Assembly: GCF_040802235.1 (NCBI RefSeq)
Contig: NC_133172.1
Span: 26,307,738-26,371,737, forward strand
Source: Manis javanica
Taxonomy: Eukaryota > Chordata > Mammalia > Pholidota > Manidae
Direction of reading: 5' to 3'
DNA length: 64,000 nt
The notes under the pieces are model-generated. The model saw only the letters and a list, made by a program, of their open reading frames with translations, did no database searches and had not been told where the DNA came from. Within the stretch, counting starts at the first letter, position 1, and each line of letters opens with the position of its first letter. Below are positions 1 to 31,617 of this stretch, in pieces. The translations under genes and the position numbers were made by a program.

Positions 1-734
1 ATTTACTCTTTTTTTTTGTAATGGGAACAATTAGCATTTATTCACATTCTTTAGCCAAAAACTTACACTATATTTGAGTATTCTTCATATTTGATGAAGA
101 CTATGCAACTACATTTGTTTTTGCCTCGACATTGAATTTCTTCCAATGAAATTATCTAGCCAATCAAAAAAGTTTCTTGATACTGTTCCTGTCTAGAAAT
201 GGCTTACTTACTCCAGTTAGAAGGTAAATCCACTGGCCAATTTCTTTCATTTTCACCAAGCAAACTAAATTCTTCCTCTTTACTTCTGCTGCGCAAAGTT
301 CTATCCTTTGAGTTCAGAAAAAGAACCATTTCCATTGTTTATTTCTTGGGTTCTCAATATCATAGCCACCAGTGGATTCTATGATAATATGGTGTTGTTC
401 AAGTAAAGGACCTCTTGTGACTTCATGTTTTTGTTTGAATAAAGAATTCTCATGGATGTAAGAAACTGGAGTGCTTGCTTAAAATAGCCCCTCATTCTAC
501 CTTAATTCTCTAAATATTTTCTATCTTTAGGCAATATCCAGGTATTGTTCCCTTTAAGAGGGAAACACACTTATGCAGTATCAAATAACTTCACATCATG
601 CAATAAATATTAAGTAATGAATGATTTTTGACAGTTTAAAAAAGTTATCAATCATGCATTCATTCTAATAATATTTCTTGAATGTCTTCCATGCTATCCC
701 AGTTTGATGATTCTAAGTATTTCTGTGATTGTTA
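1..734. other. Unassigned flank, no gene seen
   Basis: AT-rich sequence next to the poly(A) end of the first L1. It contains no reading frame with a recognisable domain, no splice-bracketed exon I would defend, and no repeat family that I can name. It is not L1 ORF2. This matters because it excludes a simple reading in which L1-A is nested inside L1-B, since the rest of L1-B would then have to lie here. Confidence 0.5.
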
Positions 735-742
735 TTTTTTTT

Positions 743-2568
743 GAGAGGGCATCTCTCATATTTATTGATCAAATGGTTGTTAACAACAATGAAATTCAGT
801 ATGGGGGGTCAATGCTCAATGTACAATCATTAATCCATCTCAAGCCTAATTCTCGTCAGTCTCCAATCTTCTGAAGCATAATGAACAAGTTCTTACATGG
901 TGAACAAATTCTTACATAGTGAATAAATTCTTACATGGTGAAGAGTACAAGGGTATTAATCACAGAAACATTCGGTTTTCATCACGCATTATGAACTATA
1001 AACAATCAGGTCAAATATGAATATTCATTTGATTTTTATAATTGATTTATATGTTGATCCCACATTTCTCCCTTTATTATTATTATTATTATTTTTATTT
1101 TTAATAAAATGCTGAAGTGGTAGGTAGATGCAAGATAAAGGTAGAAAACATAGTTTAGTGCTGTAAGAGGGCAAATGTAGATGATCAGGTGTGTGCCTAT
1201 GGACTAAGTATTAATCCAAGCTAGACAAGGGCAGCAAAACATCCACAGATGCAGAAGATTTCTCTCAAAGCAGGGGAGATGAGGTTCTGAGCCTCACCTC
1301 TGTTGATCCCCAATTTCTCACCTGATGGCCCCCCTGCGACTGTGCCTGTCTTAGGTTGTTCCTCCCTTGAGGAATCTTACCCGTCTCTGGCTAACCAGTC
1401 ATCTTCTGGGGCCATACAGGGAAATGTAAAGTTGGTAAGTGAGAGAGAAGCCATATTGTTTGAAAAGGTTAGCTTTTTACTTCTTTGCAGATTTATGCCC
1501 TGTGGCTTCTATGCCCAGCACTTGTCTCGAGGTATCTTTACCACCTGGAGGAATTATGATACTCGGTAAATTCAATATGAGGCACGAATTCTATTTAAGG
1601 GTTGTAATTAGGAAGGAAGAAGAAAAGCTATAGAGGTAGCATATGGAAGAAAACATGGGAGGATTGATTATTTCTTTGACATATCTCCTTGTAGAGTACC
1701 TTAAGTATGTATAGGTTTTAAACTACTAACTAATTTGCACACACATATTAACATAATAGGAATACAGTGACATAAACAAAGCAAATCTATAATTACCATC
1801 CATCTCCAGTGAAGCCAAGAAAACCATTTAGGCACCCTAGGCATTTGTGAAAATTTGTCTATGATATGTTGGATATTGTCCTACTGTACTTGAACAGTCT
1901 CAGAAAAATGAGACAAATTAAAGCAGCCCATTTCTGGGATCTGTTCACATCCCGTATCTTCTTTTAACCGTAGATAGTCTATAGTCATAAGATTTTGGAG
2001 TGCTACAACTTGCACCCCTCCCAACTCCTGGTTGAGTTCCAACAGTACAGATCTGGTCAAATTCGTTGTCTCACTGTATGCACATGCCAGCCCAGACATC
2101 TCCCTCCTCATTCCAATGGCAAGTTCAGGAAACGGTGGGGTGGACGCAGCCACAGCCGCAGCATCGCCCAGATCCCTGTGGAGGCTTTTTGATGATCATC
2201 CCCCGGCACGAGTCCTCCAGAGATTGCTGCTGATGCCGGAAGCTCCTCCTCATATCGTATCTTAGTTCATTTACTGGGTATCCAAGCTAGGCCTTGATCT
2301 TCTCCATGGAAACAAACAGACCCTTTGCCCACACTTTGACATGCCCTCTATACCACTGTGCAGAACTCATTGGAGGTCAGCACACAGGGACTGCCTTTTT
2401 TTCTCTTTTTATTAAGAGAAAGGAATATTATCAGAAAAGAGTACCTCCATAGCTAATCATCTGACACCCTTTAAGTGATCAACATTAAGGACATTTAAAG
2501 CATGCATTGATCTTTGATTTACCAATAGTTTTATTCTATCAAGGAGTAATCCCCCTTTTCTGTCTTCC
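743..2568 (-). mobile_element. 3' module of L1-A with env remnant and its own poly(A) signal
   Basis: This segment lies between the A-run that ends the ordinary L1 3' UTR (2569-2576) and the terminal A-run of the element. The same segment, in the same order and position, follows the L1 part of L1-D (22304-24220). Seen directly: an env TM-like coding stretch near its middle, a long noncoding tail resembling an LTR/U3-R, and AATAAA about 17 bp before the poly(A). Inference: a retroviral env-to-polyadenylation-site transcript joined the L1 3' end once and was then copied with it. Alternative: an independent processed ERV transcript that landed there once, in a common L1 ancestor. Confidence 0.75.
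1740..2200 (-). pseudogene. env-like: Retroviral envelope TM-subunit remnant inside the L1-A 3' module
   Basis: The minus-strand frame is open from about 2195 to a stop at 1881 (about 105 codons), and homology continues past the stop to about 1740. Seen in order: an Ala/Val-rich stretch (AAAVAAS) like a fusion peptide, a leucine-rich heptad region, LQNLMTIDYL like the immunosuppressive/CKS17-type region, a CX6-GC where gamma-type Env has CX6CC, an NLS glycosylation site, then a Trp-rich membrane-proximal stretch and a hydrophobic span with Cys residues. The order matches a gamma-type Env TM. Breaks: one stop codon after the Cys motif, the first Cys of the CC pair replaced by Gly, and no recognisable SU. 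It is a remnant and I infer no activity. Confidence 0.72.
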
Positions 2569-2576
2569 CTTTTTTT

Positions 2577-2914
2577 AAAATCTTTAATCTACACTTACAT
2601 GAAGAATACTATGTTTACTATGCTCTCCCCTATATCAGGTCCCCCCTAACAAACACATTATGGTTACTGTCCATCAGCTTAACAAAATGTTGTAGAATCC
2701 CTACTTGTCCTCTCTGTGTTGTGCAGCCCACCCTCCCCTTTCTCCCCCCCATGTATGCTAATCTTAATACCCCCTTCTTCTTCCCCCCACTTATCCCTCC
2801 CTGCCCACCCATCCTCCCCAGTTCCTTTCCCTTTGGTACCTGTTAGTCCATTTTTGGGTTCTGTAATTCCACTGCTGTTTTGTTCCTTCAGTTTTTCCTT
2901 TGTTCCTATACTCC
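2577..2914 (-). other. L1-A 3' UTR proper
   Basis: Read on the minus strand it follows the ORF2 stop and contains the purine-rich (plus strand C/T-rich) tract typical of L1 3' UTRs (roughly 2720-2850), ending in GATTAAAGATTT and an A-run. There is no AATAAA in the last 40 bases before the A-run, so the internal poly(A) signal is weak. This could favour read-through into the env module. Confidence 0.8.
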
Positions 2915-5900
2915 TCAGATGAGTGAAATCATTTGGTATTTCTCTTTCTCCACTTGGCTTATTTCACTGAGCATAATACTCTCCAGCTCCATCCATGTTG
3001 CTGCAAATGGTTGGATTCTTCCACTTCTTATGGCTGAGTAGTATTCCATTGTGTATATGTACCACATCTTCTTTATCCATTCATCTACCGATGGACATTT
3101 AGGTTGCTTCCAATTCTTGGCTGTTGTAAATAGTGCTGCAATAAACATAGGAGTGCATCTGTCTTTCTCAAACTTGATTGCTGCGTTCTTAGGGTAAATT
3201 CCTAGGAGTGGAATTCCTGGGTCAAATGGTAGGTCTGTTTTGAGCATTTTGATGCACCTCCATACTCCTTTCCACAATTGTTGAACTAATTTACATTCCC
3301 ACCAGCAGTGTAGGAGGGTTCCCCTTTCTCCACAGCCTCGCCAACATTTGTTGTTGTTTGTCTTTTGGATGGCAGCTATCCTTACTGGTGTGAGGTGATA
3401 CCTCATTGTAGTTTTAATTTGCATTTCTCTGATAATTAGCGATGTGGAGCATCTTTTCATGTGTCTGTTGGCCATCTGTATTTCTTTTTTGGAGAACTGT
3501 CTGTTCAGTTCCTCTGCCTATTTTTTAATTGGGTTATTTGTTTTTTGTTTGTTGAGGCGTGTGAGCTCTTTATATATTCTGGACGTCAAGCCTTTATCGG
3601 ATCTGTCATTTTCAAATATATTCTCCCATACTGTAGGGTTCCTTTTTGTTCTATTGATGGTGTCTTTCACTGTACAGAAGCTTTTCAGCTTAATGTAGTC
3701 CCACTTGCTCATTTTTGCTGTTGTTTTCCTTGCCCGGGGAGATATGTTCAAGAAGAGATCACTCATGTTTATGTCTAAGAGATTTTTGCCTGTGTTTTTT
3801 TCCAAGAGTTTAATGGTTTCATGACTTACATTGAGGTCTTTGATCCATTTTGAGTTTACCTTTGTATATGGGGTTAGACAATGGTCCAGTTTCATTCTAC
3901 TTCATGTAGCTGTCCAGTTTTGCCAGCACCATCTGTTGAAGAGACTGTCATTTTGCCATTGTATGTCCATGGCTCCTTTATCAAATATTAATTTACCATA
4001 TATGTTTGGGTTAATTTCTGGGGTCTCTAATCTGTTCCACTGGTCTGTGGCTCTGTTCTTGTGCCAGTACCAAATTGTCTTGATTACTATGGCTTTGTAG
4101 TAGAGCTTGAAGTTGGGGAGTGAGATCCCCCCTACTTCATTCTTCTTTTTCAGGATTGCTTTGGCTATTCGGGGTCTTTGGTGTTTCCATATGAATTTTT
4201 GAATTATTTGTTCCAATTCATTGAAGAATGTTGCTGGTAATTTGAGAGGGATTGCATCAAATCTGTATATTGCTTTGGGCAGGATGGCCATTTTGACGAT
4301 ATTAATTCTTCCTAGCCATGAGCATGGGATGAGTTTCCATGTATTAGTGTCCCCTTTAATTTCTCTTAAGAGTGACTTGTAGTTTTCAGAGTATAAGTCT
4401 TTCACTTCTTTGGTTAGGTTTATTCCTAGGTATATTATTCTTTTTGATGCAATGATGAATGGAATTGTTTTCCTGATTTCTCTTTCTATTGATTCCTTGT
4501 TAGTGTATAGGAAAGCTACAGATTTCTGTGTGTTAATTTTGTATCCTGCAACTTTGCTGTATTCCGATATCAGTTCTAGTAGTTTTGGAGTGGAGTCTTT
4601 AGGGTTTTTTATGTACAGTATCATATCATCTGCAAATAGTGACAGTTTAACTTCTTCTTTACTAATCTGGATTCCTTGTATTTCTTTGTTTTGTCTGATT
4701 GCCATGGCTAGGACCTCCAGTACTATGTTAAATAACAGTGGGGAGAGTGGGCATCCCTGTCTGGTTCCCGATCTCAGAGAAAATGCTTTCAGCTTCTCGC
4801 TGTTCAGTATAATGCGGGCTGTGGGTTTATCATATATGGCCTTTATTATGTTGAGGTACTTGCCCTCTATTCCCATTTTGCTGAGAGTTTTTATCATGAA
4901 TGGATGTTGAATTTTGTCAAATGCTTTTTCAGCATCTATGGAGATGATCATGTGGTTTTTGTCTTTCTTTTTGTTGATGTGGTGGATGATGTTGATGGAT
5001 TTTCGAATGTTGTACCATCCTTGCATCCCTGGGATGAACCCCACTTGGTCATGGTGTATGATCCTTTTGATATACTGTTGAATTCTGTTTGCTAATATTT
5101 TATTGAGTATTTTTGCATCTACATTCATCAGGGATATTGGTCTGTAATTTTCTTTTTTGGTGGGGTCTTTGCCTGGTTTTGGTATTAGGGTGATGTTGGC
5201 TTCATAGAATGAGTTTGGGAGTATTTGCACCTCTTCCATTTTTTGGAAAACTTTAAGGAGAATGGGTATTATGTCTTCTCTGTGTGTCTGATAAAATTCC
5301 GAGGTAAATATGTCTGGCCCAGGGGTTTTGTTCTTGGGAAGTTTTTTGATTTCCGTTTCAATATCTTTGCTCATAATTGGTTTGTTTAACTTTTGTGTTT
5401 CTTCCTTGGTCCATCTTGGAAGGTTGTATTTTTCTAGGAAGTTGTCCATTTCTTCTAGGTTTTCCAGCTTGTTGGCATATAGGTTTTCATAGTGGTCTTT
5501 AATAATTCTTTGTATTTCTGTGGAGTCTGTCGTGATTTTTCCATTCTCATTTCTGATTATGTTGATTTGTGTTGATTCTCTTTTTCTCTTAATAAGTTGG
5601 GCTAGAGGCTTATCTATTTTGTTTATTTTCTCAAAGAACCAGCTGTTTTTTTTTGTTGATTTTTGCTATTTTTTTATTCTTCTCAATTTTGTTTATTTCT
5701 TCTCTGATCTTTATTATGTCCCTCCTTCTGCTGACTTTAGGCCTCATTTGTTCTTCTTTTTCCAGTTTTAATAATTGTGATGTTAGACTATTCATTTGGG
5801 ATTGTTCTTCCTTCTTCAAGTGTGCCTGGATTGCTATATACTTTCCTCTTAAGACTGCTTTCGCTGCATCCCACAGAAGTTGGGGCTTAGTGTTGTTGTT

Positions 5901-6731
5901 GTCATTTGTTTCTATATATTCCTTGATCTCTATTTTGATTTGTTCATTGATCCATTGATTATTTAGTAGCATGTTGTTAAGCCTCCATGTGTTTGTGAGC
6001 CTTTTTGTTTTCTTTGTAGAATCTATTTCTAATTTTATACCTTTGTGGTCTGAAAAATTGGTTGGTAGAATTTCAATATTTTGGAATTTACTGAGGCTCT
6101 TTTTGTGAGCTAGTATGTGGTCTATTCTGGAGAATGTTCCATGTGCACTTGAGAAGAATGTATATCCTGTTGCTTTTGGATGTAGAGTTCTATATATGTC
6201 TATTAGGTCCATCTGTTCTAGTGTGTTGTTCAGTGCCTGTGTGTCTTTACTTATTTTCTGCCCAGTGGATCTATCCTTTGGGGTGAGTGGTGTGTTGAAG
6301 TCTCCTACAATGAATGCATTGCAGTCTATATCCCTCTTTAGTTCTGTTTGTATTTGCTTCACATATGCTGGTGCTCCTGTATTGGGTGCATATATATTTA
6401 GAATGGTTATACCCTCTTTTTGGACTGAGCCCTTTATCATTATGTAGTATCCTTCTTTATCTCTTGTTACTTTCTCTGTTTTGAAGTCTATTTTGTCTGA
6501 TATTAGTACTGCAACCCCTGCTTTCTTCTCACTGTTGTTTGCCTGAAATATGTTTTTCCATCCCTTGACTTTTAGTCTATGCTTATCTTTGTGTGTAAGG
6601 TGAGTTTCTTGTAAGCAGCATATACATGGGTCTTGCTTTTTTATCCATTCTATTACTCTATGTCTTTTTATTGGTGCATTAAGTCCATTTACATTTAGGG
6701 TGACTATTGAGAGATATGTACTTATTGCCAT
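2915..6731 (-). pseudogene. L1 ORF2: L1-A ORF2 (endonuclease-reverse transcriptase), three breaks
   Basis: ORF2p nicks target DNA and primes reverse transcription of L1 RNA at the nick. The start is taken at the ATG at 6731 (MAISTYLS, just before LNVNG). Endonuclease residues are all visible: N of LNVNG, E of QETH, D and N of GDFNT, D and H of RIDHI, SDHKGI. The reverse-transcriptase FADD motif lies at about 4640-4650, and the Cys-rich end ([14 protein letters not shown]) near 3300. Breaks: a frameshift in an A-run (plus-strand T-run near 5641-5649), a TGA at 3902-3904 and a TAG at 3518-3520. The C-terminus then reads to the normal stop. Damage is light for an L1 pseudogene. Minus-strand neighbours: ORF1 ends about 195 bp upstream. 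Confidence 0.93.
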
Positions 6732-6926
6732 TGCAGGCTTTAGATTCGTGGTTACCAAAGGTTCAAAGTTAGCTTCTTTAGTATCTTACTGCCTAAATTA
6801 GCTTGCTTATTGAGCTGTTATATACACTGTCTGGAGATTCTTTTCTTCTCTCCCTTCTTATTCCTCCTCCTCCATTCTTCATATGTTGTATGTTTTGTTC
6901 TGTGCTCTTTTTAGGAGTGCTCCCAT

Positions 6927-7817
6927 CTAGAGCAGTCCCTGTAGGATGCCCTGTAGAGGTGGTTTGTGGGAAGCAAATTCCCTCAGCTTTTGCTTGTCTG
7001 GGAATTGTTTAATTCCGCCATCATATTTAAATGATAGTCGTGCTGGATACAGTATCCTTGGTTCAAGGCCCTTCTGTTTCATTGCATTAAGTATATCATG
7101 CCATTCTCTTCTGGCCTGTAGGGTTTCTGTCGAGAAGTCTGATGTTAGCCTGATGGGTTTTCCTTTATAGGTGACCTTTTTCTCTCTAGCTGCCTTTAAA
7201 ACTCTTTCCTTGTCCTTGATTCTTGCCATTTTAATTACTATGTGTCTTGGTGTTGTCCTCCTTGGATCCTTTCTGTTGGGAGTTCTGTGTAATTCCATGG
7301 TCTGTTCGATTATTTCCTCCCACAGTTTGGGGAAGTTTTCAGCAATTATTTCTTCAAAGAGACTTTCTATCCCTTTTCCTCTTTCTTCCTCTTCTGGTAT
7401 CCCTATAATACGAATATTATTCCTTTTGTATTGGTCACATATTTCTCTTAGTGTTGTTTCATTCCTGGAGATCCTTTTATCTCTCTCTGTGCCAGCTTCT
7501 ATACGTTCCTGTTCTCTGGCTTCTATTCCTTCCATGGCCTCTTGCTTCTTATCCATTCTGCTTATAAATCCTTCCAGGGATTGTTTCACTTCTGTGATCT
7601 CCTTCCTGACATCTGTGATCTCCTTCCGGACTTCATCCCACTGCTCTTGCATTTTTCTCTGCATCTCATCCCATTGCTCTTGCATTTTTCTCTGCATCTC
7701 TGTCAGCATGTTCATGATTTTTATTTTGAATTCTTTTTCAGGAGGACTAGTTAGGTCTGTTTCCCTCTCAGGTATTGTCTCTGTGATCTTTGTCTGCCTG
7801 TAGTTTTGCCTTTTCAT
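6927..7817 (-). CDS. L1 ORF1: L1-A ORF1 protein, intact, 296 aa
   Basis: ORF1p is the trimeric RNA-binding chaperone of the L1 ribonucleoprotein. The frame is complete from ATG at 7817 to a stop at 6927. Visible order: a basic N-terminus (MKRQNYRQ), a coiled coil at about residues 35-105, an RRM-like region beginning around NNIRIIGIPEEE (about 135-145), and a C-terminal domain with REWHDILNAMKQKGLEPRI (about 235-255). The coiled coil contains an exact 11-residue repeat (residues 41-51 and 52-62, MQRKMQEQWDE) followed by two heptads VRKEITD/VRKEITE (63-76). It is 13 residues longer than ORF1 of L1-D (283 aa). It differs from L1-B ORF1 at about 15 of 296 positions. It is an L1 protein, not a host gene. 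Confidence 0.95.
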   Translation of the reverse strand: MKRQNYRQTKITETIPERETDLTSPPEKEFKIKIMNMLTEMQRKMQEQWDEMQRKMQEQWDEVRKEITDVRKEITEVKQSLEGFISRMDKKQEAMEGIEAREQERIEAGTERDKRISRNETTLREICDQYKRNNIRIIGIPEEEERGKGIESLFEEIIAENFPKLWEEIIEQTMELHRTPNRKDPRRTTPRHIVIKMARIKDKERVLKAAREKKVTYKGKPIRLTSDFSTETLQARREWHDILNAMKQKGLEPRILYPARLSFKYDGGIKQFPDKQKLREFASHKPPLQGILQGLL

Positions 7818-9421
7818 GGTGATGGAGATAGTTTGCAGAGCTGGTACAAGTGACTGCTGTAAGAGCTTCCCTTCTTGTTGGTTTGTGGCCTTTTCCTGGG
7901 AGAATAGCGACCTCTAGTGGCTTGTGCTGGGCAGCTGTGCGCAGACAGGGCTTCTGCTTCCTGCCCAGTTGCTTTGGGGTTTATCTCTGCTGTTGCTGTG
8001 GGCTTGGCCTGGCTGGGGCTGTTCCTCCAAAATGGTGGAGCCCCATTGGAGGGGGAGCAGCTGGGAGGCTATTTATCTCCATAAGGGGCCTCTGTGCTCC
8101 CTGCTACCCAGGGGGTTAGAGTGCCCAGAGATCCCCAGATTCCCTGCCTCTGGTCTAAGTGCTCTGTCCTGCCCCTTTAAGACTTCCAAAAAGCACTCTC
8201 CAAACCAAAACAACAACAGCAACAATTAGAGAGGGAACAGAAAGGAAAAAAAAAAAGGAAAAAACACGCGATTTTTTTTATTTTTTATTTTTTTTTGTTC
8301 TCAGGTGCCTGTCCCAGGCACCCGCTCACTGGTCCTGCTGCCCTGTCTCCCTAGCACCAGGGTCCCTGTCCTTTCAAGGCTTCCAAAAAGCACCCACCCA
8401 CCAGTCCCGCAGGGAAGGAACCTCGATATTCTTTGTCCTCAGGCGCTAGTCCTAGGCACCCACTCACCAGTCCCGCCACCCTGCCTCCCTAGCACCAGGG
8501 TCCCTGTCCCTTTAGGCCTTCCAAAAAGCACTCACCAAAAAGAGAGAAAAAAAAGGGAAAAACGCGCAATTTCCTCCGTCCTCAGGTGCCGGTCTCAGGC
8601 ACCCGCCCACCGGTCCCACAGGGAAAAACACGCGATATTCTTTGTCCTCCGGCGCCGGTCCCAGGCACTCGCTCACCAGTCCTGCCGCCCTGTCTCCCTA
8701 GCACCGGGGTCCCTGTCCCTTTTAGGCTTCCAAAAAGCACTCGCAAAAAAGAGAAAAAAAAAAAAAGGGAAATACGCGATTTCCTCTGTCCTCAAGTGCC
8801 GGTCTCAGGCACCCGCCCCCCAGTCCTGCAGGGAAAAACGTGGGATATTCTTTGTCCTCAGGCACTGGTCCCAGGCATCCACTCACCAGTCCCGCCACCC
8901 TGCCTCCCTAGCACCGGGGTCCCTGTCCCTTTAAGTCTTCCAAAATGTGCTCGCCAAAAAGAGAAAAAAAAAGGGGGAAAAATGCGCGATTTCCTCCGTC
9001 CTCAGGCGCCGGTCTCAGGCACCCGCCCGCCGGTCCCGCAGGGAGAAACGCGGGATATTCTTTGTCCTCAGGCGCCGGTCCCAGACACCTGCTCACCGGT
9101 CCCGCCACCCTGCCTCCCTAGCAAGGGGGGCCCGTCCCTTTAAGGCTTCCAAAAAGCACTCACCAAAAAAAAAATGCACCGGTTTCTTTCCACCCACCGG
9201 GAGCCAGGTGGAGGGGCGCTCGGGTCCCGCCGGGCCGGGGCTTGTATCTTACCCCCTTTGCAAGGTGCTGGGTTCTTGCAGGTGTGGATGTGGTCTGGAT
9301 GTTGTCCTGTGTCCTGTGGTCTCTATTTTAGGAAGATTTTTCTTTGGTATATTTTCATAGCTCTATGTGTTTTTGGGAGGAGATTTCCACTGCTCTACTC
9401 ACGCCGCCATCCTGGCTCCGC
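7818..9421 (-). promoter_or_regulatory. L1-A 5' UTR with internal promoter region
   Basis: A GC- and CpG-rich leader read on the minus strand. It has three parts: a distal part with the element start (9421-9150), the monomer array (9145-8380), and an ORF1-proximal non-repetitive part (8290-7818). Just inside the element start the minus strand reads CCAGGATGGCGGCGTGAG, whose GATGGCGG core resembles the YY1 site that sets the start of transcription in primate L1. Several long plus-strand frames cross this region; they result from the repeat and the lack of stops in GC-rich DNA. Confidence 0.8.
8380..9145 (-). repeat. L1-A 5' UTR monomer array, one 138-bp and three ~210-bp units
   Basis: Marker CTTCCAAAA occurs at plus-strand 8380, 8518, 8727, 8937 and 9146, giving spacings of 138, 209, 210 and 209 bp. 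Each full unit holds an A-run with GAGAAAAAA, then two related GC-rich halves that each include GTCCTCAGG(C/T)GCCGGTC (about 66 bp apart), then GCCTCCCTAGCACC and CCCTTTAAGG. The 138-bp unit lacks about 72 bp, as if deleted between two GCAC repeats. The same short unit sits at the ORF1-proximal edge in L1-B. Confidence 0.9.
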
Positions 9422-9502
9422 CTTCACTCTGTGTCTTTTGATTGGTGCATTAAGTCCATTTACATTTAGGGTGACTATTGAGAGATATGTACTTATTGCC
9501 AT
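9422..9502 (-). pseudogene. L1 ORF2: L1-B ORF2, first 27 codons
   Basis: The N-terminus of the endonuclease domain from ATG 9502. It matches the start of L1-A ORF2 through the LNVNG and NAPIKR region and stops matching at the fusion with the L1-A 5' end. No catalytic set is left. It marks the fusion point rather than encoding anything useful. Confidence 0.85.
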
Positions 9503-17580: not shown

Positions 17581-18572
17581 TGAGAAAATGTGAGAAAAAA
17601 AATGAATCAGATGACTTTAGGAGGGTGAGTTCCCTGCTACTGGAGCATTAAAGAGAGTCTGAACTTTTTGGCCTGGCTATTGTGGGAGATATTTCATGTT
17701 TTGGGTTACCTTAAGCTGCCTTTTATCCCAGAAGTTTGTGTATACATCAAAGTGGAGTCTCCAAAAGTACAATGTCAGAAGAATAGTAAGGGAGGTAGAT
17801 GAAGAGTTAGAGTTAAATAGTGAAGATACAAATATGGTGGTGGCATAGCTGGATGCTTATTCCTTCCACTCCCTTTGCATTGATTGGATCAGCTTGTGCA
17901 GGAAGAGTCTGAAGTGTGACTACATGTTTATGTGTTTGCCTGTGTGTATGTATATATGTGTGAAATCATATGAATGGCTTTGTGTGCATACATGTGCAGC
18001 ACAAGCACTCGTGTATGCATGTTTCTATATGTATTTATGTGCATGCATGTGTTTGTGTGTTGAAGAAACAAAATGGAAGTGCTGAATTAGGTTCAGATAG
18101 CTGAAATAATTCTGGTTCCATCACATCTTGTAATGTTGTAAATATTAAAGTTAAAGGCTTTTTCAGTATAAACCTAGGCCAAAAACATGTTCACAGATCT
18201 TTTCAAAAGATGCAAATGAAACAACTTTTTTTCTTTTGGTATCATTAATCTACAATTGCATGAGGAACATTATGTTTACTAGACTCCCCCCATCACCAAC
18301 TTCCCCCCACATACCCCATTACAGTCACTATCTATCAGTGTAGTATGATGCTGTGGAATCACTCCTTGTCTTCTCTGTGTTGTACAGCCCTCCTTGTGGC
18401 CCCCCACCCCCATTATACATGCTAATCATGGTGCCCACTTTCTCCCCTGCTTCCTCTTATCCCTCCCTTCCCACCCATCCTCCCCAGTCCCTTTCCCTTT
18501 GGTAACTGCTAGTTCATTCTTGGGTTCTGTGAGTCTGCTGCTGTTTTGCTCCTTCAGTTTTTTTCATTGTTC

Positions 18573-21500
18573 TTATACTCCACAGATGAGTGAAATCATT
18601 TGATACTTGTTTTTCTCTTCCTGGCTTATTTCCCTGAGCATAATACCCTCTAGCTCCATCCATGTTGTTGCAAATGGTAGGATTTGTTTTCTTCTTATGG
18701 CTGAATAATATTCCACTGTGTATTTGTACCAAATCACCAAATCTTCTTTATCCATTCATCTACTGATGGAGCATTTAGGTTGCTTCCATTTCTTGGCTAT
18801 TGTAAATAGTGCTGTGATAGACATAGGGGTGCATATGTCATATGTCTTTTTCAAACTGGGTGGTTGCATTCTTAGGGTAAATTCTAGAAGTGGAATTCCT
18901 GGTATTTCTATTTTGAGATTTTTTAAGAACCTCCATACAGCTTTCCACAATGGTTAAACTAATTTACATTTTTCCACCTGCAGTGCAGGAGGGTTTCCCT
19001 TTCTCCAAAACCTCACCAACATTTGTTGTTGTTTGTCTTTTGTATGGTGGTGACCCTTACTGGTATGAGGTGATATCTCATTTTGGTTTTAATTTGCATT
19101 TCTATGATGACTAGCGATATGGAGCATCTTCTCATGTGTCTGCTGGCCATCTGAATTTCTTCTTTGTAGAAGTGCCTGTTCAGATCCTGTGCCCATTTTT
19201 TAATTGGATTATTTGCTTTTTGTTTGTTGAGGTGGATGAGCTCTTTATATATTTTGGATGTCAACACTTGATTGAATCTGTTATTTATGAATATATTCTC
19301 CCATACTGTAGGATGCCTTTTTGTTCTATTGGTGGTGTTCTTTGCTGTACAGATGCTTTTCAGCTTGATATAGTCCCACTTGTTCATTTTTGCTTTTGTT
19401 TTCCTTGCCCTTCTTTCCTTGAAGAAGTTGCTCATGTTTATGTCCAATAGATTTTTGCCTATGTTTTTTCCTAAGAGTTTTATGATTTTATGACTTACAT
19501 TCAGGTCTTTGATGCATTTTGAAATTACATTTGTTTATGGGGTTAGACAGTGATCCAGTTTCATTCTCTTACATGTAGCTGTCCAGTTTTGCAACATCAG
19601 CTGTTGAAGAAGCTCTCATTTCCCCATGGCTCTCATTACCGATCCATGGCTCCTTTATGGTATATTAATTGACCATATATGTTTGGGTTAATATCTGGAC
19701 TGTCTATTCTGTTCCACTGTTCTGTGGGTCTGTTCTTGTGCCAGTACCAAATTGTCTTGATTACTGTGGATTTGTAGTAGAGCTTGAAGTTGGAAAGCAA
19801 GATGCCCCCCACTTTGTTCTTCCTTCTCAGGATTGCTTTGGCTATATGGAGCCTTTTGTGGTTCCATATGAATTTTAGAACTATTTGTTCCAGTTCATTG
19901 AATAATGCTGTTGGTACTTTGATAGGAATTGCATTGAATATGTATATTGCTTTAGCAAGGATGGCCATTTTCAAAATATTAATTCTTCCTAGCAAAGAGC
20001 ATGGGATGAATTTCCATTTGTTAGTGTCCTCTTTAATTCATGTTGAGTGTCTTGTAGTTTTCAGGGTATAGGTCTTTTACTTCCTTGGTTAGGTTTATTC
20101 CTCGGTATTTTATTCTTTTCGATGCAATTGTGAATGGAATTGTTTTCTTGATTTCTCTTTCTGTTAGTTCATCGTTACTGTATAGGAAAGTAACAGATTT
20201 CTGTGTATTACTTTTGTATCCTGCAACTTTGCTGTATTCCGATATCAGTTCTAGTAGTTTTGGAGTGGAGTCTTTAGGGTTTTTTATGTACAGTATCATA
20301 TCATCTGCAAATAGTGACAGTTTAACTTCTTCTTTACTAATCTGGATTCCTTGTATTTCTTTGTTTTGTCTGATTGCCGTGGCTAGGACCTCCAGTACTA
20401 TGTTAAATAACAGTGGGGAGAGTGGGCATCCCTGTCTGGTTCCCGATCTCAGAGGAAATGCTTTCAGCTTCTCGCTGTTCAGTATAATGCGGGCTGTGGG
20501 TTTATCATATATGGCCTTTATTATGTTGAGGTACTTGCCCTCTATTCCCATTTTGCTGAGAGTTTTTATCATGAATGGATGTTGAATTTTGTCAAATGCT
20601 TTTTCAGCATCTATGGAGATGATCATGTGGTTTTGTCCTTCTTTTTGTTGTTGTGGTGTATGATGTCGATGGATTTTTGAATGTTGTACCATCCTTGCAC
20701 CCCTGAGATGAATCCCATTTGACCATGATGGATAATCTTTTTGATGTATTTTTGAATTTGGTTTGCTAATATTTTGTTAGTATTTTTGCATCTACGTTCA
20801 TCAGGGATATTTGTCTGTAATTTTCTTTTTTGGTGGTGCCTTTGCCTGGTTTTGGTATTAGAGTGATGCTGACTTCATAGAATGAGTTTGGTAGTATACC
20901 CTCCTCTTCTATTTTTTGGAAAACTTTAAGGAGAATGGGTATTATGTCTTCTTCAAATGTCTGATAACATTTAGCAGTAAATCCATCTGGTCTGGAGGTT
21001 TTGTTCTTGGGTAGTTTTGATTACCAAATCAATTTCATTGCTGGTAATTGGTCTGTTTAAATTTTCTATTTCTTCTTTGTTCAGTCTTTCAAAGTTGTAT
21101 TTTTCTAGAAAGTTGTCCATTTACTCTAGGTTAATCAGTTAGCAATATTCTGTAATAATTCTTTGTATTTCTGTGGTGTCCATCATGATTTGTCCTTCCT
21201 CACTTTCTGATTCTGTTTAATTGCATAGATTCTCTTTTTCTCTTAATAAGTCTGGCCAGAGGTTTATCTGTTTTGTTTATTTTCTCAAAGAACTAGCTCT
21301 TGGTTTCATTGATTTTTTCTATTGTTTTATTCTTCCCAATTTTATTTATTTCTTCTCCGATCTTTATTATGTCCCTCCTTCTGCTCACTTTGGGCTTCAT
21401 TTGTTCTTCTTTTTCCAGTTTCGATAATTGTGACTTTAGACTATTCACTTGGGATTGTTTTTCCTTCTTTAAATAGGCCTGGATTGCTATATACTTTCCT

Positions 21501-22292
21501 CTTTGAACGGCCTTTGCTGCATCCCACAGAAGTTGGGGCTTTGTACTGCTGTTTTCATTTGTCTTGAGATATTGCTTAATCTCTGTTTTAATTTGGTCAC
21601 TGATCCATTGGTTATTTAGGAGCATGTTGTTAAGCCTCCATGTGTTTGTGAGCCTTTTTGTTTTCTTTATACAATTTATTTCTAGTTTTATACCCTTGTG
21701 ATCTGAGAAGTTGTTTGGTAGAATTTCAATCTTTTTGAATTTACTGAGGCCTTTTTGGCCTAGTATGTGGTCCATTCTGGAAATATTCCATGTTCACTTC
21801 AGAAGAATCTGTGTCCTGCTGCTTTTGGGCGGAGAGTTATTTAGATGTCTGTTAGGTCCATCTGTTCTAGTGTGTTGTTCATTGTATCTGTGTCCTTACT
21901 TATTTTCTGTCTGGTTGATCTGTCCTTTGGAGTGAGTGGTTTGTTGAGGTCTCCTAAAATGAATGCATTGAATTCTATTTACTCCTTTAATTCTTTTAGC
22001 ATTTGTTTCACATATGTCAGTGCTCTTGTGTTGGGTGCACAGATATTTATAATGGTTATATCCTCTTCTTGGACTGACCCCTTTATCATTTTGTAATGTC
22101 CTTCTTTATCTCTTGTTGCTTTCTTTGTTTTGAAGTCTATTTTGTCTGATACAAGTAGTGCAACACCTGCTTTTTTCTCCCTATTGTTTGCATGAAATGT
22201 CTTTTTACATCAATTGACTTTTAGTCTGTGTATGCCTTTACACTTTACATTTGCGGTAAGTCTCTTGTAGGCAGTATATAGATGGGTCTTGC
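18573..22292 (-). pseudogene. L1 ORF2: L1-C ORF2, heavily broken
   Basis: Pieces of the endonuclease-RT frame occur in order on the minus strand: endonuclease C-terminal part (21775-21293), RT core with FADD (20692-20033), thumb region (19995-19636), the region before the Cys motif (19447-19013), and the normal C-terminus ending [10 protein letters not shown] (18755-18573). Stops and frameshifts separate them. The RT core between 20212 and 20634 is unusually intact and matches L1-A at 421 of 423 bases by eye. Confidence 0.9.
20212..20634 (-). repeat. 423-bp tract shared almost perfectly with L1-A
   Basis: Aligned by eye with 4537-4959: equal length, no gaps, two mismatches (A/G at GCC(A/G)TGG and at GAG(A/G)AAATG). 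In contrast the 130 bp just outside (20085-20211 against 4410-4536) differ at roughly 16 positions, and the far side changes abruptly at the TTTTGTC(T/C)TTC junction. The tract covers the RT catalytic core. Confidence 0.85.
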
Positions 22293-23262
22293 TTTTTTTT
22301 TTTGAGAGGGCTTCTCTCATATTTATTGATCAAATGGTTGTTAACAACAATAAAATTCTGTATAGGGGACTCAATGCTCAATGCACAATCATTAATCCAC
22401 CCCAAGCCTAATTCTCATCAGCCTCCAAACTTCTGAAGCATAACGAAAAAGTTCTTACATGGTGAACAAATTCTTACATAGTGAATAAGTTCTTACATGG
22501 TGAACAGTACAAGGGCAGTCATCACAGAAACTTTTGGTTTTGATCACGCATTATGAACTATAAACCATCAGGTCAAATATGAATATTCATTTGATTTTTA
22601 TACTTGATTTATATGTGAATCCCACATTTTTCCCTTATTATTTATTATTATTATTTTTAATAAAATGCTGAAGTGGTAGGTAGATGCAAGATATAGGTAG
22701 AAAACATGGTTTAGTGTTATAGGAGAGCAAATGTAGATGAGCAGGTGTGTGCCTGTAGACTAAGTGTTAATCCAAACTAGACAAGGGCAATAAAACATCC
22801 ACGGATGAAGAAGATTTCTCTCAAAACAGCAGGGGGGTGGGGGGGTGAGGTTCTAAGCCTCTCCTCTGTTTATCCGCAATTTCTCACCTGGTGGCCCCCC
22901 TGTGACTGTGCCTGTCTTAGGTTGTTCCTCCCTTGAGGAATCTTACCCGTCTCTGGCTAACCAGTCATCTTCTGGGGCCATACAGGGAAATGTAAAGTTG
23001 GTAAGTGAGAGAGTAGCCATATTGTTTGAAAAGGTTAGCTTTTTACTGCCTTGCAGATTTATGCCCTGTGGGTTTTATGCCCAGCATTTGTCTTGAGATA
23101 TCTTTACCACTTGGAAGAATTATGATACTTGGTAAATTCGATATGAGGCACGAATTCTATTTAAGGGTTGTAATTAGGAAGGGAAAAGAAAAGCTATAGA
23201 AGTAGCAGATGGAAGAAAACATGGGAAGATTATTTCTTTGACATATCTTATTGTAGAGTAAC

Positions 23263-23870
23263 TTAAGCATGTATAGGTTTTAAACTACTGATTAAATTGC
23301 ATATAGACATTAACATAATAGGAATACAGTTACATAACCAAAGCAGACCTATAATTACCAGCCATCTCCAGTGAAACCAAGAAAACCAGCTAGGCATCCT
23401 AGGCATTTGTGAAAATTTATCTATTATATGATGGATATTGTCCAACTGAACTTGAACAGTCTGAGAGAAATCAGACAAGTTAAAACAACCCATTCCTGGG
23501 AACTGATCACATCCCATATTTTCCTTTAACAGTAGATAGTCTATAGTCAGAAGATTTTGGAGCACTGCAACTTACACTTCTCCTAATCCTTGGTTGAGTT
23601 CCGACAGTATAGATCCAGTCAAATTTGTTGTTTTATTGTAGTCATAAGAGTTTGGAGTGCTACAACTTGCACTTCTCCTAATTCTTCGTTGAGTTCCAAC
23701 AGTATAGATCCAGTCAAATTTGTTGTTTTACTGTATGCACAGGCCAGCTTAGATATCTCCTTCTTCATTCCCATGGCAAGTCCAGGAACTGGTGGGATGA
23801 ATGCAGCTACAACTGTAGCAGCACCTGGATCTTTGTTGAGGATTTTTGATGGTCATCTTCTCTTATGACT
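23263..23870 (-). pseudogene. env-like: Retroviral envelope TM-subunit remnant in the L1-D 3' module
   Basis: One minus-strand frame of 100 codons (23565-23263) carries, in order, LQNLLTIDYLLLKE, a CX6-GC motif, FNLSD with an N-glycosylation site, a helical stretch, the Trp-rich PSWFSWFHWRW, a hydrophobic span of about 20 residues, and a short tail. The frame upstream (about 23870-23740) adds an Ala/Val-rich stretch and LAMGMKKEI, like a fusion peptide and the region after it. The 95-bp duplication separates the two and shifts the frame. As in L1-A, the first Cys of the expected CC pair is Gly. Gamma-type Env is the best family match; the exact genus is not resolved. Confidence 0.75.
23544..23732. 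repeat. 95-bp tandem duplication in the env module
   Basis: Copy one begins TAGTCAGAAGATTTTGGAG (23544) and copy two TAGTCATAAGAGTTTGGAG (23639); both run to TTGTTGTTTTA(T/C)TG. L1-A has a single copy of this part (around 1985-2075). The two copies differ at several positions, so the duplication is not brand new. Confidence 0.85.
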
Positions 23871-24229
23871 CTTCCAGAGAGTGCTGATGTTGGAAGTTCT
23901 TCTTCATATTGTATCTTAGTTCATTTTCTGAGTAGCCCAATTAGGCTTTGATCCTCTGTATAAATACAAACAGACCCTTTGCCCACACTTTGATATGCTA
24001 TTTATACCATTGTGTAGAACTCATTGGAGGTCACCACACAGGAACTGCTTTTCTTTTTCTTTTTTAAGAGAAAGAAATATTATCAGAAAAATGTACCTCC
24101 ATAGCTGATCATCTAAAACCCTTTAAGTGATCAAAATTAAGGATATTTAAAGCATGCATTTATCATTGATTTACAGTTAGTTTTATCCTATCAGGGAGTA
24201 ATCCCCCTTTTCATTCTTTCTTTTTTTTT

Positions 24230-24558
24230 GTTATCATTAATCTACACTTACATGAAGAATATTATGTTTACTAGGCTCTCCCCTACACCAGGTTCCCCCT
24301 ATAAACCCCTTTACAGTCACTGCCCATCAGCATAGCAAAATGTTGTAGAATCACAACTTGTCTTCTCTGTGTTGTACAGCCCTCCCCTTTCTCCCACCTC
24401 CCCATGTATGCTGATCTTAATGCCCCCCTTTTTCTTCCCCCCCTTATCCCTCCCTACCCACCTATTATCCCCAGTCCCTTTCCCTTTGGTACCTGTTAGT
24501 CCGTTCTTGGGTTCTGTGATTCCGCTGCTGTTTTGTTCCTTCAGTTTTTCCTTTGTTC
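24230..24558 (-). other. L1-D 3' UTR proper
   Basis: Minus strand: follows the ORF2 stop, has the purine-rich tract, and ends GATTAATGATAAC before an A-run. No AATAAA occurs near that A-run. Copy C stops exactly at the corresponding point (18238). Confidence 0.78.
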
Positions 24559-27500
24559 TTATACTCCACAGATGAGTGAAATCATTTGGTATTTCTCTTT
24601 CTCCGCTTGGCTTATTTTACTGAGCATAATACCCTCTAGCTCCATCCATGTTGCTGTAAATAGTAGGATTTGCCCTCTTCTTATGGCTGAGTAGTATTCC
24701 ATTGTGTATATGTACCACATTTTCTTTATCCATTCATCTACTGATGGACACTTAGGTTGCTTCCATTCCTTGGCTATTGTAAATAGTGCTGTGATAGACA
24801 TAGGGGTGCATCTGTCTTTTTCAAACTGGAGTGCTGCATCCTTAGGGTAAATTCCTATGAGTGGAATTCCTGGGTCAAATGATAAGTCTGTTTTGAGCAT
24901 TTTGAGGAACCTCCATACTGCTTTCCACAATGGTTGAACTAATTTACATTCCCACCAGCAGTGTAGGAGGGTTCCCCTTTCTCCGCAACCTTGTTCAATG
25001 ATGGCAATCCTTACTGGTGTGAGGTGATATCTCATTGTGGTTTTAATTTGCCTTTCTCTGATAACTAGTGATATGGAGCATCTTTTCATGTGTCTCTTGA
25101 CCATCTGAATTTCTTCTTTGGAGAACTGTCTGTTCAGCTTCTCTGCCCATTTTCTAATTGGATTATTTGCTTTTTGTTTGTGGAGGTGCATGAGCTCTTT
25201 ATATATTTTGGATGTCAAGCCTTTATCAGATCTATCATTTACTAATATATTCTCCCATACTGTAGGGTACCTTTTTGTTCTATTGATGGTATCCTTTGCT
25301 GTACAGAAGCTTTCGTCTTGATACAGTTCCACTTGTTCATTTTTGCTGTTGTTTTCCTTGCCCAGGGAGATATATTCATGAAGAAGTCACTAATGTTCAC
25401 ATCCAAGAGATTTTTGCCTATGTTTTTTTCTAAGAGTTTTATGGTTTCATGACTTACATTCAGGTCTTTGATCCATTTTGAATTTACTTTTGTGTATGGG
25501 GTTAGACAGTGATCCAGTTTCATTCTCTTACGTCTAGCTGTCCAGTTCTGCCAGCAGCATCTGTTGAAGAGACTGTCATTTCCCCATTGTAAGTCCATGG
25601 CTCCTTTATTGAATATTAATTGACCACATATGTTTGGGTTAATGTCTGGAGTCTCTAATCTGTTCCACTGGTCTGTGGCTCTGTTCTTGTGCCAGTACCA
25701 AATTGTCTTGATTACTATGGCTTTGTAGTAGAGCTTGAAGTTGGGAAGTGAGATCCTCGCCACTTAATTCTTCTTTCTGAGGATTGCTTTGGCTATTCGG
25801 AGTCTTTGGTGTTTCCATATGAATTTTTGAACTATTTGTTCCAGTTTGTTGAAGAATGTTGCTGGTAATTTGATCGGGATTGTATCAAATCTATATATTG
25901 TTTTGGGCAGGATGGCCATTTTGAAGATATTAATTCTTCCTAGCCAAGAGCATGGGATGAGTTTCCATTTGTTAGTGTCCTCTTTAACTTCTCTTAAGAG
26001 TGTCTTATAGTTTTCAGGGTATAGGTCTTTCACTTCTTTGGTTTGGTTTATTCCTAGGTGTTTTTTTTTTTCTTTTTTGATGCTATTGTGAATGGAATTG
26101 TTTTCCTAATTTAACTTTCTATTGGCTCATTGTTAGCATATAGGAAAGCCACAGATTTCTGTGTGTTAATTTTGTATCCTCCAACTTTGCTGTATTCCGA
26201 TATCAGTTATAGTAGTTTTGGAGTGGAATCTTTAGGATTTTTTATGTACAATATCATGTCATCAGCAAATAGTGACAGTTTAATTTCTTCTTTACCAATC
26301 TGGATTCCTTGTATTTCTTTGTTTTGTCTAATTTCCATGGCTAGGACCTCCAGTACTATGTTTAATAACAGTGGGGAGAGTGGGCACCCCTGTCTTGTTC
26401 CCAATCTCAGAGGAAAACTTTCAGCTTCTCGCTGTTCAGTATGAGTTGGCTGTGGGTTTATTGTATATGGCCTTTATTATGTTGAGGAACTTGCCTTCTA
26501 TACCCATTTTGCTGAGAGTTTTTATCATGAATGGATGTTAAACTTTATTGAATGCTTTTTCAGCATCTATGGAGATGATCATATGGTTTTTGTCTTTCTT
26601 TTTGTTGATGTGGTGGATGACGTTGATGGATTTTCGAATGTTGTATCATCCTTGCATCCCTGGAATTAATACCACTTGGTCGTGGTGTATGATCCTTTTG
26701 GTACATTTTTGAATTCGATTTACAAATATTTTATTGAGTATTTTTGAATCTACGTTCATCAGGGATATTGGTCTGTAGTTTTCTTTTTTGGTGGGGTCTT
26801 TGCCTGGTTTTGGTATTAGGGTGATGTTGGCTTCATAGAATGAGTTTGGGAGTATTCTCTCCTCTTCTATTTTTTGGAAAACTTTAAGGAGAATGGGTAT
26901 TAGATCTTCTCTGTATGTCTGATAAAATTCCGAGGTAAATCCATCTGGCCCAGGGGTTTTCTTCTTGGATAGTTTTTTGATTACTGCTTCAATTTCTTTG
27001 CTGGTAATTGGTTTGTTTCGATATTCTGTTTCTTCCTTGGTCAGTCTTGGGAGGTTGTATTTTTCTAGGAAGTTGTCTATTTCTTCTAGGTTTTCCAGCT
27101 TGTTGGCATATAGGTTTTCTAAGTAGTCTTTAATAATTCTTTGTATTTCTGTGGAGGCTGTAGTGATTTTTCCGTTCTCATTTCTGATTCTGATGATTTT
27201 TGTTGATTCTCTTTTTCTCTTAATAAGTTTGGCTAGTGGCTTATCTGTTTTGTTTATTTTCTCAAAGAACCAACTCTTGGTTTCATTGATTTTTGCTATT
27301 GTTTTATTCTTCTCAATTTTGTTTATTTCTTCTCTGATCTTTGTTATGTCCCTCCTTCTGCTGACTTTAGGCCTAATTTGTTCTTCTTTTTCCAATTTTG
27401 ATAACTGTGACATTAGACTATTCATTTGGGTTTGTTCTTCCTTGTTTAAATATGCCTGGATTGCTATATACTTTCCTCTTAAGACTGCTTTCACTGTGTC

Positions 27501-28368
27501 CCACAGAAGTTGGGGCTTTGTTTTCTTGTTCTCATTTATTTCCATATATTGCTGGATCTCCGTTTTAATTTGGTCATTGATCCATTGACTATTTAGAAGC
27601 ATGTTGTTAAGCCTCCATGTGTTTGTGAGCCTTTTTGCTTTCTTGGTACAATTTATTTCTAGTTTTATACCTTTGTGGTCTGAAAAGTTGGTTGGTAGGA
27701 TTTCAATCTTTTGGAATTTACTGAGGCTCTTTTTGTGGCCTAGTATGTGGTCTATTTTGGAGAATGTTCTATGTGCGCTTGAGAAGAATGTGTATCTTGT
27801 TGCTTTTGGGTGTAGAGTTCTATAGATGTCTATTAGGTCCATCTTTTCTAGTGTGTTGTTCAGTGCCTCTGTGTCCTTACTTATTTTCTGCCTGGCGGAT
27901 CTGTCCTTTGTAGTGAATGGTGTATTGAAGTCTCCCAAAATTATTGCATTGCATTCTATTTCCTCCTTTAGTTCTGTTCATATTTGTTTAACATATGCTG
28001 GTGCTTCTGTGTTGGGTGCATATATATTTAGAATGGGTGCAAATATATTTAGTCTTGTTGGACTGAGCCCTTTATTATTATGTAATGTCCTTCTTTATCT
28101 CTTGTTACTTTCTTTGTTTTGAAGTCTATTTTTTCTGACAGTAGTACTGCAACACCTGCTTTTTTCTCCCTTTTGTTTGTATGGAATATCTTTTTCCATC
28201 CCTTGACTTTTAGTCTGTGCAGTCTTTGGGTTTGAGGTGAGTCTCTTGTAAGCAGCATATAGATGGGTCTAGTTTTTTTATCCATTCGGTGACTCTATGT
28301 CTTTTGACTCGTGCATTCAGTCCATTTACATTTAGGATGATTATCGATAGGTATGTACTTATTGCCAT
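24559..28368 (-). pseudogene. L1 ORF2: L1-D ORF2, broken in several places
   Basis: Start at ATG 28368. Ordered pieces are readable: endonuclease (28285-28049, then 27938-27500 with GDFNTPF and KIDHI, SDHKGI), the linker and RT (27500-26646, 26404-26207 with FADD), thumb (26033-25764), the next region (25763-25242), and the C-terminus (25332-24559) with [14 protein letters not shown] and the normal end. Frameshifts fall near 28040, 26640, 26430, 26060 and 25330, and there is a stop near 25764. More damaged than L1-A, although its ORF1 is intact. Confidence 0.9.
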
Positions 28369-28675
28369 TTCAGGCTTTAGATTTGTGGTTATGAAAGGTT
28401 CCAGGTTACTTTCCTTACTATCTAAGTCTAACTTAACTCACTTAGTGTGCTGTTACAAACACAATCTAAAGGTTCCTTTCTATTTCTCCTCCTTTTTCTT
28501 CCTCCTTCGTTCTTTATATATTAGGTATTAGATTCTATACTTTTTCTCTATCCCTTGATTGGCTTTGGGGATAGTCAATTTAATTTGCATTTGCCTCCCA
28601 ATCAGCTGCTCCACCCTCCCTACTATAATTTTCCTACCTCTGGTGACAGCTATCCACCCCTAGGAATACTTCCAT

Positions 28676-30159: not shown

Positions 30160-30593
30160 TCAGCAATTATTTCTTCAAAGACACTTTCTATCCCTTTTTC
30201 TCTCTTCTTCTTCTGGTTCCCCTATAATGTGAATATTGTTCCATTTGGATTGATCACATAGTTCTCTTAATATTCTTTAATTCCTAGAGATCCTTTTATC
30301 TCTCTCTGCCTCAGCATCTCTGTATTCCTATTCTCTGATTTCTATTCCATTAACAGTCTCCTGCACCACATCCAGTCCACTCTTAAGTCCTGCCATTGAT
30401 TGTTTCATTTCTGTAATCTCCTGGTGGACTTCATCCTTAACTCTTGCTTATTTCTCTTTAGCTCCATCACCCTGGTTATGACTTTTATTTTGAATTCTTT
30501 TTCAGGAAGATTGTTTATATCTATCTTGCCAGGCCCTCTCTCTGGCATTGTTTGAGTGATTCTGAACTGGACCAGGTTCTTCTGCCTTTTCCT
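30160..30593 (-). pseudogene. L1 ORF1: L1-E ORF1, N-terminal part
   Basis: The reading frame aligns with L1 ORF1 from its start (KRQKNLVQ) through the coiled coil to the NNI..GEPEEE-like region, ending at ATTGCTGA next to L1-D. The ATG is AGG here (plus-strand CCT at 30591-30593), and stops and frameshifts follow in the coiled coil. Not functional. Confidence 0.8.
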
Positions 30594-31612: not shown

Positions 31613-31617
31613 CTCTG

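What the first reader, a model, noticed from the sequence alone, without database searches (positions are those of the whole stretch)
743..2568. L1 lineage carrying a captured retroviral env/LTR module at its 3' end
L1-A (743-2568) and L1-D (22304-24220) both end, after the ordinary L1 3' UTR and its A-run, with the same segment of about 1.8-1.9 kb. It encodes an Env TM-like stretch (fusion-peptide-like part, LQN..DYL region, CX6-GC, NLS glycosylation site, Trp-rich and membrane segments) in the L1 sense direction and ends with AATAAA and poly(A). The junctions are the same, so one capture was inherited by both. An env-bearing L1 lineage is not something I know to be described. It could be a 3' transduction fixed in a family, or a functional 3' extension.
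Basis: partly seen in the sequence, partly recalled or inferred. Interest (0 to 1): 0.87.

Follow-up and report, generated by a model that had tools for sequence, protein, structure and literature searches.

The report
Jumping gene with retroviral tail
In what looks like a pangolin genome, two copies of the common jumping gene LINE-1 end with the same piece of an ancient retrovirus (part of its envelope gene and an end-repeat-like stretch), probably picked up once by accident and then copied as a new tail that supplies the polyadenylation signal.

Summary
Of three L1 elements on the minus strand of a pangolin-like window, two (A, D) carry the same 1.8-1.9 kb segment after the native L1 3' end, with the same junction; the modules agree at 1604 of 1809 aligned columns (88.7%). 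The third L1 (C) stops with an A-run at the junction point. The Env claim is supported: TM pieces match the avian sarcoma/leukosis virus TM (E 1.4e-7 and 8.8e-7; profile 4.9e-16), although Pfam finds nothing in 20 pieces. The Env frame is broken in both copies and shows no clear codon-level constraint; no SU was recognised. Both modules end in AATAAA 24 nt before the A-run; the scanned native L1 ends (3 of 3) have none. Best explanation: a one-time 3' transduction (or template switch) of a defective ERV's env/LTR piece became the 3' end of an L1 lineage. It parallels the HERV-K10-derived SINE-R of SVA, but on an autonomous L1. L1-A probably carries a further ~0.7 kb transduction. Copy number could not be measured: 12 identical genome-search requests did not complete. 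Nine paper searches (listings, open-licence papers only) showed no such element.

The parts
743..2568 (-). module in L1-A: unassigned 5' part, Env TM remnant, polypurine-like tract, LTR-like end with AATAAA
   Evidence: TM match; AATAAA at 766, 24 nt before the A-run
1884..2195 (-). Env TM piece in L1-A (104 aa, open): fusion-loop/HR1/CX6GC part
   Evidence: PDB sequence search: ASLV TM 4jpr/5h9c, best E 1.4e-7; profile 4.9e-16; Pfam none
1704..1880 (-). Trp-rich and membrane-spanning piece after an in-frame stop
   Evidence: Kyte-Doolittle 2.62 over 19 aa; separate stop-to-stop pieces
743..1064 (-). LTR-like (U3-R) part starting TG after a purine tract, with 19-nt tandem repeats at 882-942
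   Evidence: read from sequence; tandem repeat; no paired LTR, so inferred
22304..24218 (-). module in L1-D, same order, with a 95-bp tandem duplication (23544-23735) inside the TM part
   Evidence: TM match
2568..2915 (-). native 3' UTR of L1-A with purine-rich tract, ending in an A-run at the junction
   Evidence: alignment of A, C and D; AGTAAA and ATTAAA but no AATAAA in 2578-2700
2568..9424 (-). L1-A body: ORF2 (pieces within 2918-6785), ORF1 (6930-7913), 5' UTR with ~210-nt repeats
   Evidence: Pfam RVT_1 1.1e-45, Exo_endo_phos 3.5e-22, Transposase_22 9.7e-25; repeats
24218..30159 (-). L1-D body; 5' end placed at about 30159
   Evidence: Pfam; the 5' end rests on a weak similarity (63% over 255)
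18226..22298 (-). L1-C without module; ends with an A-run at the junction point; interrupted by L1-D
30158..31613 (-). probable 5' remainder of L1-C on the other side of L1-D (about 0.7 kb of L1 missing between)
   Evidence: no clear target duplication
18..734 (-). probable further 3'-transduced segment of L1-A, ending AATAAA plus A-run
   Evidence: 13-nt repeat 1-13 / 12623-12635 (1 of 3000 random windows reached 13); AATAAA at 42

Best explanation
A pangolin L1 whose own 3' end had no canonical polyadenylation signal lay upstream of, or inside, a defective ERV in the same direction. Its transcript ran past its own A-run through what was left of env, then the U3 and R of the 3' LTR, and was polyadenylated at the LTR's AATAAA. 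The copy made from that RNA became a source element, so L1 plus ERV tail was inherited as a unit and copied again. The env part is passenger sequence; the piece that may have mattered is the retroviral poly(A) signal. Shown: unit structure, shared junction, Env TM homology, AATAAA placement, broken env. Inferred: the LTR identity, the read-through, the fitness value of the signal, and that the lineage is a family of any size.
For: Same junction in A and D, just after the L1 A-run. Module divergence (205 of 1809 columns, 11.3%) lies within the range of the L1 parts: ORF2 8.6-11.6%, native 3' UTR 14.4%, ORF1 19.6%. L1-C stops with its A-run at that point, then has unrelated flank, and appears interrupted by L1-D, so C would be older than the D insertion. 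AATAAA lies 24 nt before the A-run in 2 of 2 modules and in 0 of 3 scanned native ends; these have AGTAAA at 42-43 nt, plus ATTAAA at 11 nt in A. TM homology. L1-A appears to have carried a further ~0.7 kb, so read-through happens in this lineage. A Manis pentadactyla gamma-type ERV with an almost complete L1 between env and 3' LTR is reported in PMC12584738 (passages): a possible kind of parent arrangement, its orientation not stated in the passages read and no link to this ERV shown.
Against: Only two linked copies were seen; the genome could not be searched. No target duplication of 7 nt or more was found for L1-D at either candidate 5' end; for L1-C only a 7-nt match; and L1-A taken without 1-734 has a 9-nt match (720-728 / 12640-12648) that is not adjacent to the element's ends but is a competing reading. 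L1-C could be a prematurely ended or internally primed copy of a module-bearing L1. Divergence along the module is uneven (16.3%, 8.8%, 9.0% by thirds), which may point to recombination or constraint. No parent locus is known.
Confidence: 0.7

Rival explanations
1. RNA template switch: L1 reverse transcriptase began on the poly(A) of an ERV transcript and jumped to the tail of an L1 RNA, so no L1 insertion next to an ERV was ever needed; the chimera then became a source.
For: The module ends at the LTR-like poly(A) site and begins right after the L1 A-run. L1 forms chimeras with diverse RNAs (PMC13174262: abstract, passages and section 22).
Against: In the passages I read of that paper the added sequence is on the 5' side of L1; none I saw gives a full L1 a new 3' end.
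Confidence: 0.15
2. The segment is an old, ordinary L1 3' UTR of this lineage that L1-C lacks through premature polyadenylation or internal priming; the retroviral origin is true but ancient.
For: An A-run inside a transcript can prime; L1-C has only one 3' end to judge from.
Against: TM still matches ASLV TM at E 1.4e-7 and 8.8e-7 in separately broken copies; C differs more from A and D than they do from each other (ORF2 middle, CpG left out: 0.117 and 0.137 against 0.083), though C may simply be older.
Confidence: 0.1
3. The Env TM frame is kept for a function (an env-bearing L1).
For: Homologous predicted proteins of 58-149 aa number 23; codon position 2 differs least (7 against 13 and 16).
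Against: In-frame stop in A, 95-bp duplication and frame change in D; 24 replacement against 9 silent codons; no SU recognised; the 23 proteins are predicted ORFs and so are open by choice of method.
Confidence: 0.03
4. Two independent insertions of an ERV-derived piece behind two L1s.
For: None beyond the general possibility.
Against: Same junction point in both and module divergence in the range of the L1 parts.
Confidence: 0.02

Closest known systems
SVA retrotransposon, SINE-R domain
   Same: 3' end made of the env 3' part plus 3' LTR of an ERV (HERV-K10), followed by an A-tail (PMC12593883, passages; PMC7353768, passages)
   Different: SVA is non-autonomous and hominoid-specific; here the tail sits on an L1 with ORF1 and ORF2, and the ERV has an ASLV-type TM
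L1 3' transduction (and transduction families)
   Same: Sequence beyond the native L1 end is co-mobilised to the next poly(A) signal
   Different: The carried piece is retroviral, brings its own canonical poly(A) signal, and is shared by copies that differ by about 11%; human transduction families are young (recalled)
L1 chimeras with other RNAs (PMC13174262)
   Same: L1 joined to a foreign RNA sequence in one insertion
   Different: The additions in the passages read are at the L1 5' side; words beginning 'envelope' or 'ERV' do not occur in its text
ERV-Gamma.b9-Mpen with inserted L1 (PMC12584738)
   Same: L1 and ERV env/LTR side by side in a pangolin
   Different: One ERV interrupted by an L1; in the passages read not an L1 carrying the ERV piece onward
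L1-made retrocopy of a co-opted env gene (ARTenvV, PMC9604959, passages)
   Same: Env-derived RNA moved by the L1 machinery
   Different: A retrocopy in trans, not joined to an L1
ASLV-type Env transmembrane subunit
   Same: HR1, LQN, CX6-C region and NLS site align
   Different: First Cys of CC replaced by Gly in A and D, no SU recognised, frame broken

Membership tests
LINE-1 (L1-A, L1-D bodies) | ORF1 with RRM-like and dsRBD-like domains | tested here: met
   Transposase_22 and Tnp_22_dsRBD in both; LINE-1 ORF1p structures E 6.5e-57 for A
LINE-1 (L1-A, L1-D bodies) | ORF2 with endonuclease and reverse transcriptase | tested here: met
   Exo_endo_phos and RVT_1 in pieces of both (A 3.5e-22 and 1.1e-45; D 2.3e-6 and 2.9e-7); frames not intact
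LINE-1 3' transduction | Foreign sequence after the native 3' end, ending with its own poly(A) signal and A-run | tested here: met
LINE-1 3' transduction | Target-site duplication enclosing L1 plus transduced part | tested here: inconclusive
   13-nt repeat for L1-A taken with 1-734, part of it a T-run and cut by the window edge; 9-nt non-adjacent match for A without it; none for D
LINE-1 3' transduction | A source locus where L1 stands before the same flank | not testable with these tools
   genome search unanswered 12 times (call numbers in Tried and rejected)
Retroviral Env TM, ASLV type | Sequence homology to a solved TM | tested here: met
Retroviral Env TM, ASLV type | CX6CC motif | tested here: not met
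   CX6GC in both window copies; CX6CC in homologues P0003, P0008, P0016 (P0021 has the CC but lacks the first Cys)
Retroviral Env TM, ASLV type | Pfam Env profile | tested here: not met
   0 of 20 pieces at E <= 10; pieces are short
Endogenous retrovirus (provirus) | Paired LTRs around the internal part | tested here: not met
   blastn of the whole module finds only the two L1-linked copies in the window
Endogenous retrovirus (provirus) | gag and pol | tested here: inconclusive
   none in 20 short pieces by Pfam; a pol-end reading of two pieces found only chance-level matches
Functional env gene | Open frame and codon-level constraint | tested here: not met
   breaks; codon counts, (two copies only)
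SVA-like composite | Non-autonomous element | tested here: not met
   L1 with ORF1 and ORF2 domains
SVA-like composite | Alu-like and VNTR parts | not tested
   not sought

The most novel reading that the evidence does not exclude
An L1 lineage replaced its weak native 3' end with a retroviral env/U3/R tail, amplified into a pangolin family because of the captured poly(A) signal, and keeps part of the tail (about 1291-1450) under constraint as a new functional 3' UTR.
Probability: 0.3. Interest if true: 0.68.

Novelty: new variant of a known kind. Interest (0 to 1): 0.52.

Why it matters
[quoted passage not shown] how L1s acquire new 3' ends is less clear. An autonomous L1 carrying an ERV-derived 3' end would show the SVA-type solution on the autonomous element itself, and would let one ask whether a captured retroviral poly(A) signal helps an L1 lineage spread. 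It also warns annotators: env/LTR-like pieces in such a genome may be L1 tails, not ERVs.

Tried and rejected
Pfam on 20 stop-to-stop pieces of the two modules: nothing at E <= 10. Integrase C-terminus reading of part of the module's first 0.3 kb, suggested by eye: two short pieces against PDB sequences gave one chance-level hit each, so it is not claimed. RNA structure of 1300-1600: z -1.51, 6 of 100 shuffles as good. Rfam on the whole window, gathering threshold: no match. IMG/VR scan for a 33-base module end: 0; prokaryote contigs for a 25-base piece: 0; IMG/VR for the TM profile: 7 pattern matches, none confirmed. Those tools say that records of the window's own genome may be left out, and the collections are viral and prokaryotic, so this says little. 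Functional Env rejected on breaks and codon counts. Nine paper searches whose listings showed no L1 with an ERV env/LTR tail: (open-licence full texts, lists capped; only titles and abstract starts seen, apart from the papers named). labels its TM segment 1700-2078, but the stretch used was 1700-1999.

Full report
What is there. The window is pangolin-like: the best hits of the L1-A ORF1 protein are Manis javanica LINE-1 ORF1 proteins, up to 92% identical over 90% of the query (best 120 of 4500 listed). The species is inferred, not given. Three L1 elements, here called A, C and D, lie on the minus strand, and L1-like sequence begins at about 62600 on the plus strand. L1-A has ORF1 (327 aa queried, RRM-like and dsRBD-like domains) and an ORF2 split over four open pieces with endonuclease and reverse transcriptase matches.

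The module. A blastn of 743-2568 against the window finds itself and 22304-24218 only (E <= 1e-3). The aligned modules differ at 205 of 1809 columns. For the L1 parts, A and D differ by 8.6-11.6% in three ORF2 stretches (the last with part of the 3' UTR), 14.4% in the native 3' UTR and 19.6% in ORF1. In both copies the module starts directly behind the native L1 3' UTR and its short A-run, at the same place. L1-C, which lacks the module, has its A-run and then unrelated flank at that point.

Env. The 104-aa piece 1884-2195(-) matches the transmembrane subunit of avian sarcoma/leukosis virus at E 1.4e-7, and the separately broken 102-aa piece 23266-23571(-) does so at 8.8e-7. A profile of the window piece with 23 public homologues gives 4.9e-16, and weaker matches to other viral fusion subunits (2.2e-5 for the next molecule). 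A hydrophobic stretch follows. Pfam gives nothing for 20 of 20 pieces. No SU was recognised, and only about 0.4 kb lies between the module start and the TM part. Both window copies read CX6GC; three of the homologues read CX6CC.

LTR-like end. Near 1065-1078 the sense strand shows a purine-rich tract followed by TG; then come 19-nt tandem repeats (882-942) and AATAAA 24 nt before the A-run. There is no paired LTR, so 'U3-R' is inferred. The native L1 ends have no AATAAA in the 122-131 nt scanned, 3 of 3: AGTAAA at 42-43 nt in all, and ATTAAA at 11 nt in A (ten signal variants).

Order of events. L1-D's 3' end abuts L1-C's ORF2, and L1 sequence resumes at 30158-31613 after a 5'-start-like stretch at 29917-30159. 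I read this as D inserted into C, with about 0.7 kb of C missing and no target duplication found for D. C would then be older than the D insertion. It may be a module-less ancestor, or a copy that ended early at the A-run; three elements cannot tell.

A second transduction. Window 1-13 repeats at 12623-12635 (13 of 13 bases, five of them a T-run). A match of that length was reached in 1 of 3000 random windows, which were not barred from overlapping the sites themselves. With AATAAA about 25 nt before an A-run at the low end, the simplest reading is that L1-A, its module and a further ~0.7 kb were inserted together. Against it: a 9-nt match between 720-728 and 12640-12648, not adjacent to the ends, could be offered for an L1-A ending at 743. 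Segment 1-734 matches nothing else in the window. The window edge cuts the repeat, so this is probable, not proven.

Selection. Over 299 aligned bases of the TM frame A and D differ at codon positions 1, 2 and 3 by 13, 7 and 16 (of 99, 100, 100), with 24 replacement and 9 silent codons. The lean to position 3 is what weak past constraint could leave, but it is small. The least diverged part of the module is outside env: the longest identical run is 110 bases (4 of 5000 shuffles reach this) and the quietest 150-column window has 2 differences (3 of 5000). The first third of the module differs at 16.3%, the others at 8.8% and 9.0%. Constraint on a new 3' UTR, or recombination between lineages, could cause this; two copies cannot decide.

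How widespread. 23 homologous proteins (64-94% identical over the aligned part) come from short public contigs without names. By eye they fall into an A-like and a D-like type, so the TM piece is multicopy, but its linkage to L1 in those contigs is unknown. The source genome could not be searched: 12 identical requests did not complete.

Literature. SVA's SINE-R comes from the env 3' end and 3' LTR of HERV-K10 (PMC12593883, passages). L1 chimeras with RNAs are catalogued in PMC13174262 (abstract, passages, section 22). A pangolin ERV survey reports Alpha-, Beta- and Gamma-type lineages and one ERV with an inserted L1 (PMC12584738, passages), but no L1 carrying an ERV tail in the passages read. 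PMC9604959 describes an L1-made retrocopy of an env gene (passages). An older L1 survey of placental mammals names pangolins as an order without a draft sequence then (PMC1764860, passages). The listings of nine paper searches showed no such element; subscription papers and repeat databases were not searched, and it may well sit in a repeat library unremarked.

Verdict. A real and shared chimeric 3' end; a passenger, broken env; a possible role for the captured poly(A) signal; family size unmeasured.

Noticed in passing
47738-48228 and 52761-53251: 491-bp direct repeats, 100% identical, beginning TG and ending CA, with GGGCC directly outside on both sides: looks like a very young LTR element of about 5.5 kb.
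   Followed up: partly
1-742: Probable further ~0.7 kb 3' transduction by L1-A, with a 13-nt repeat at 12623-12635.
   Followed up: partly
6655-8290 and 9426-11060: The 5' part of L1-A (5' UTR, ORF1, start of ORF2) is present twice in tandem, 94% identical over 1633 columns; a true double or an assembly artefact.
   Followed up: partly
8390-9170 and 11153-12357: Tandem ~210-nt units in the L1-A 5' UTR, like the monomers of mouse L1 (recalled); no such array was listed in L1-D.
   Followed up: no
1291-1450: Least diverged part of the module between A and D (5 of 150 columns differ at 1291-1440), with a 110-base identical run, outside the env remnant.
   Followed up: partly
23544-23735: 95-bp tandem duplication inside the TM remnant of L1-D.
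   Followed up: no
62599-64000: L1-like 5' UTR and ORF1 sequence on the plus strand running off the window end.
   Followed up: no
protein P0019: TM homologue whose N-terminal part is unrelated up to TTNLT: a 5'-truncated module copy or an exon made from it.
   Followed up: no
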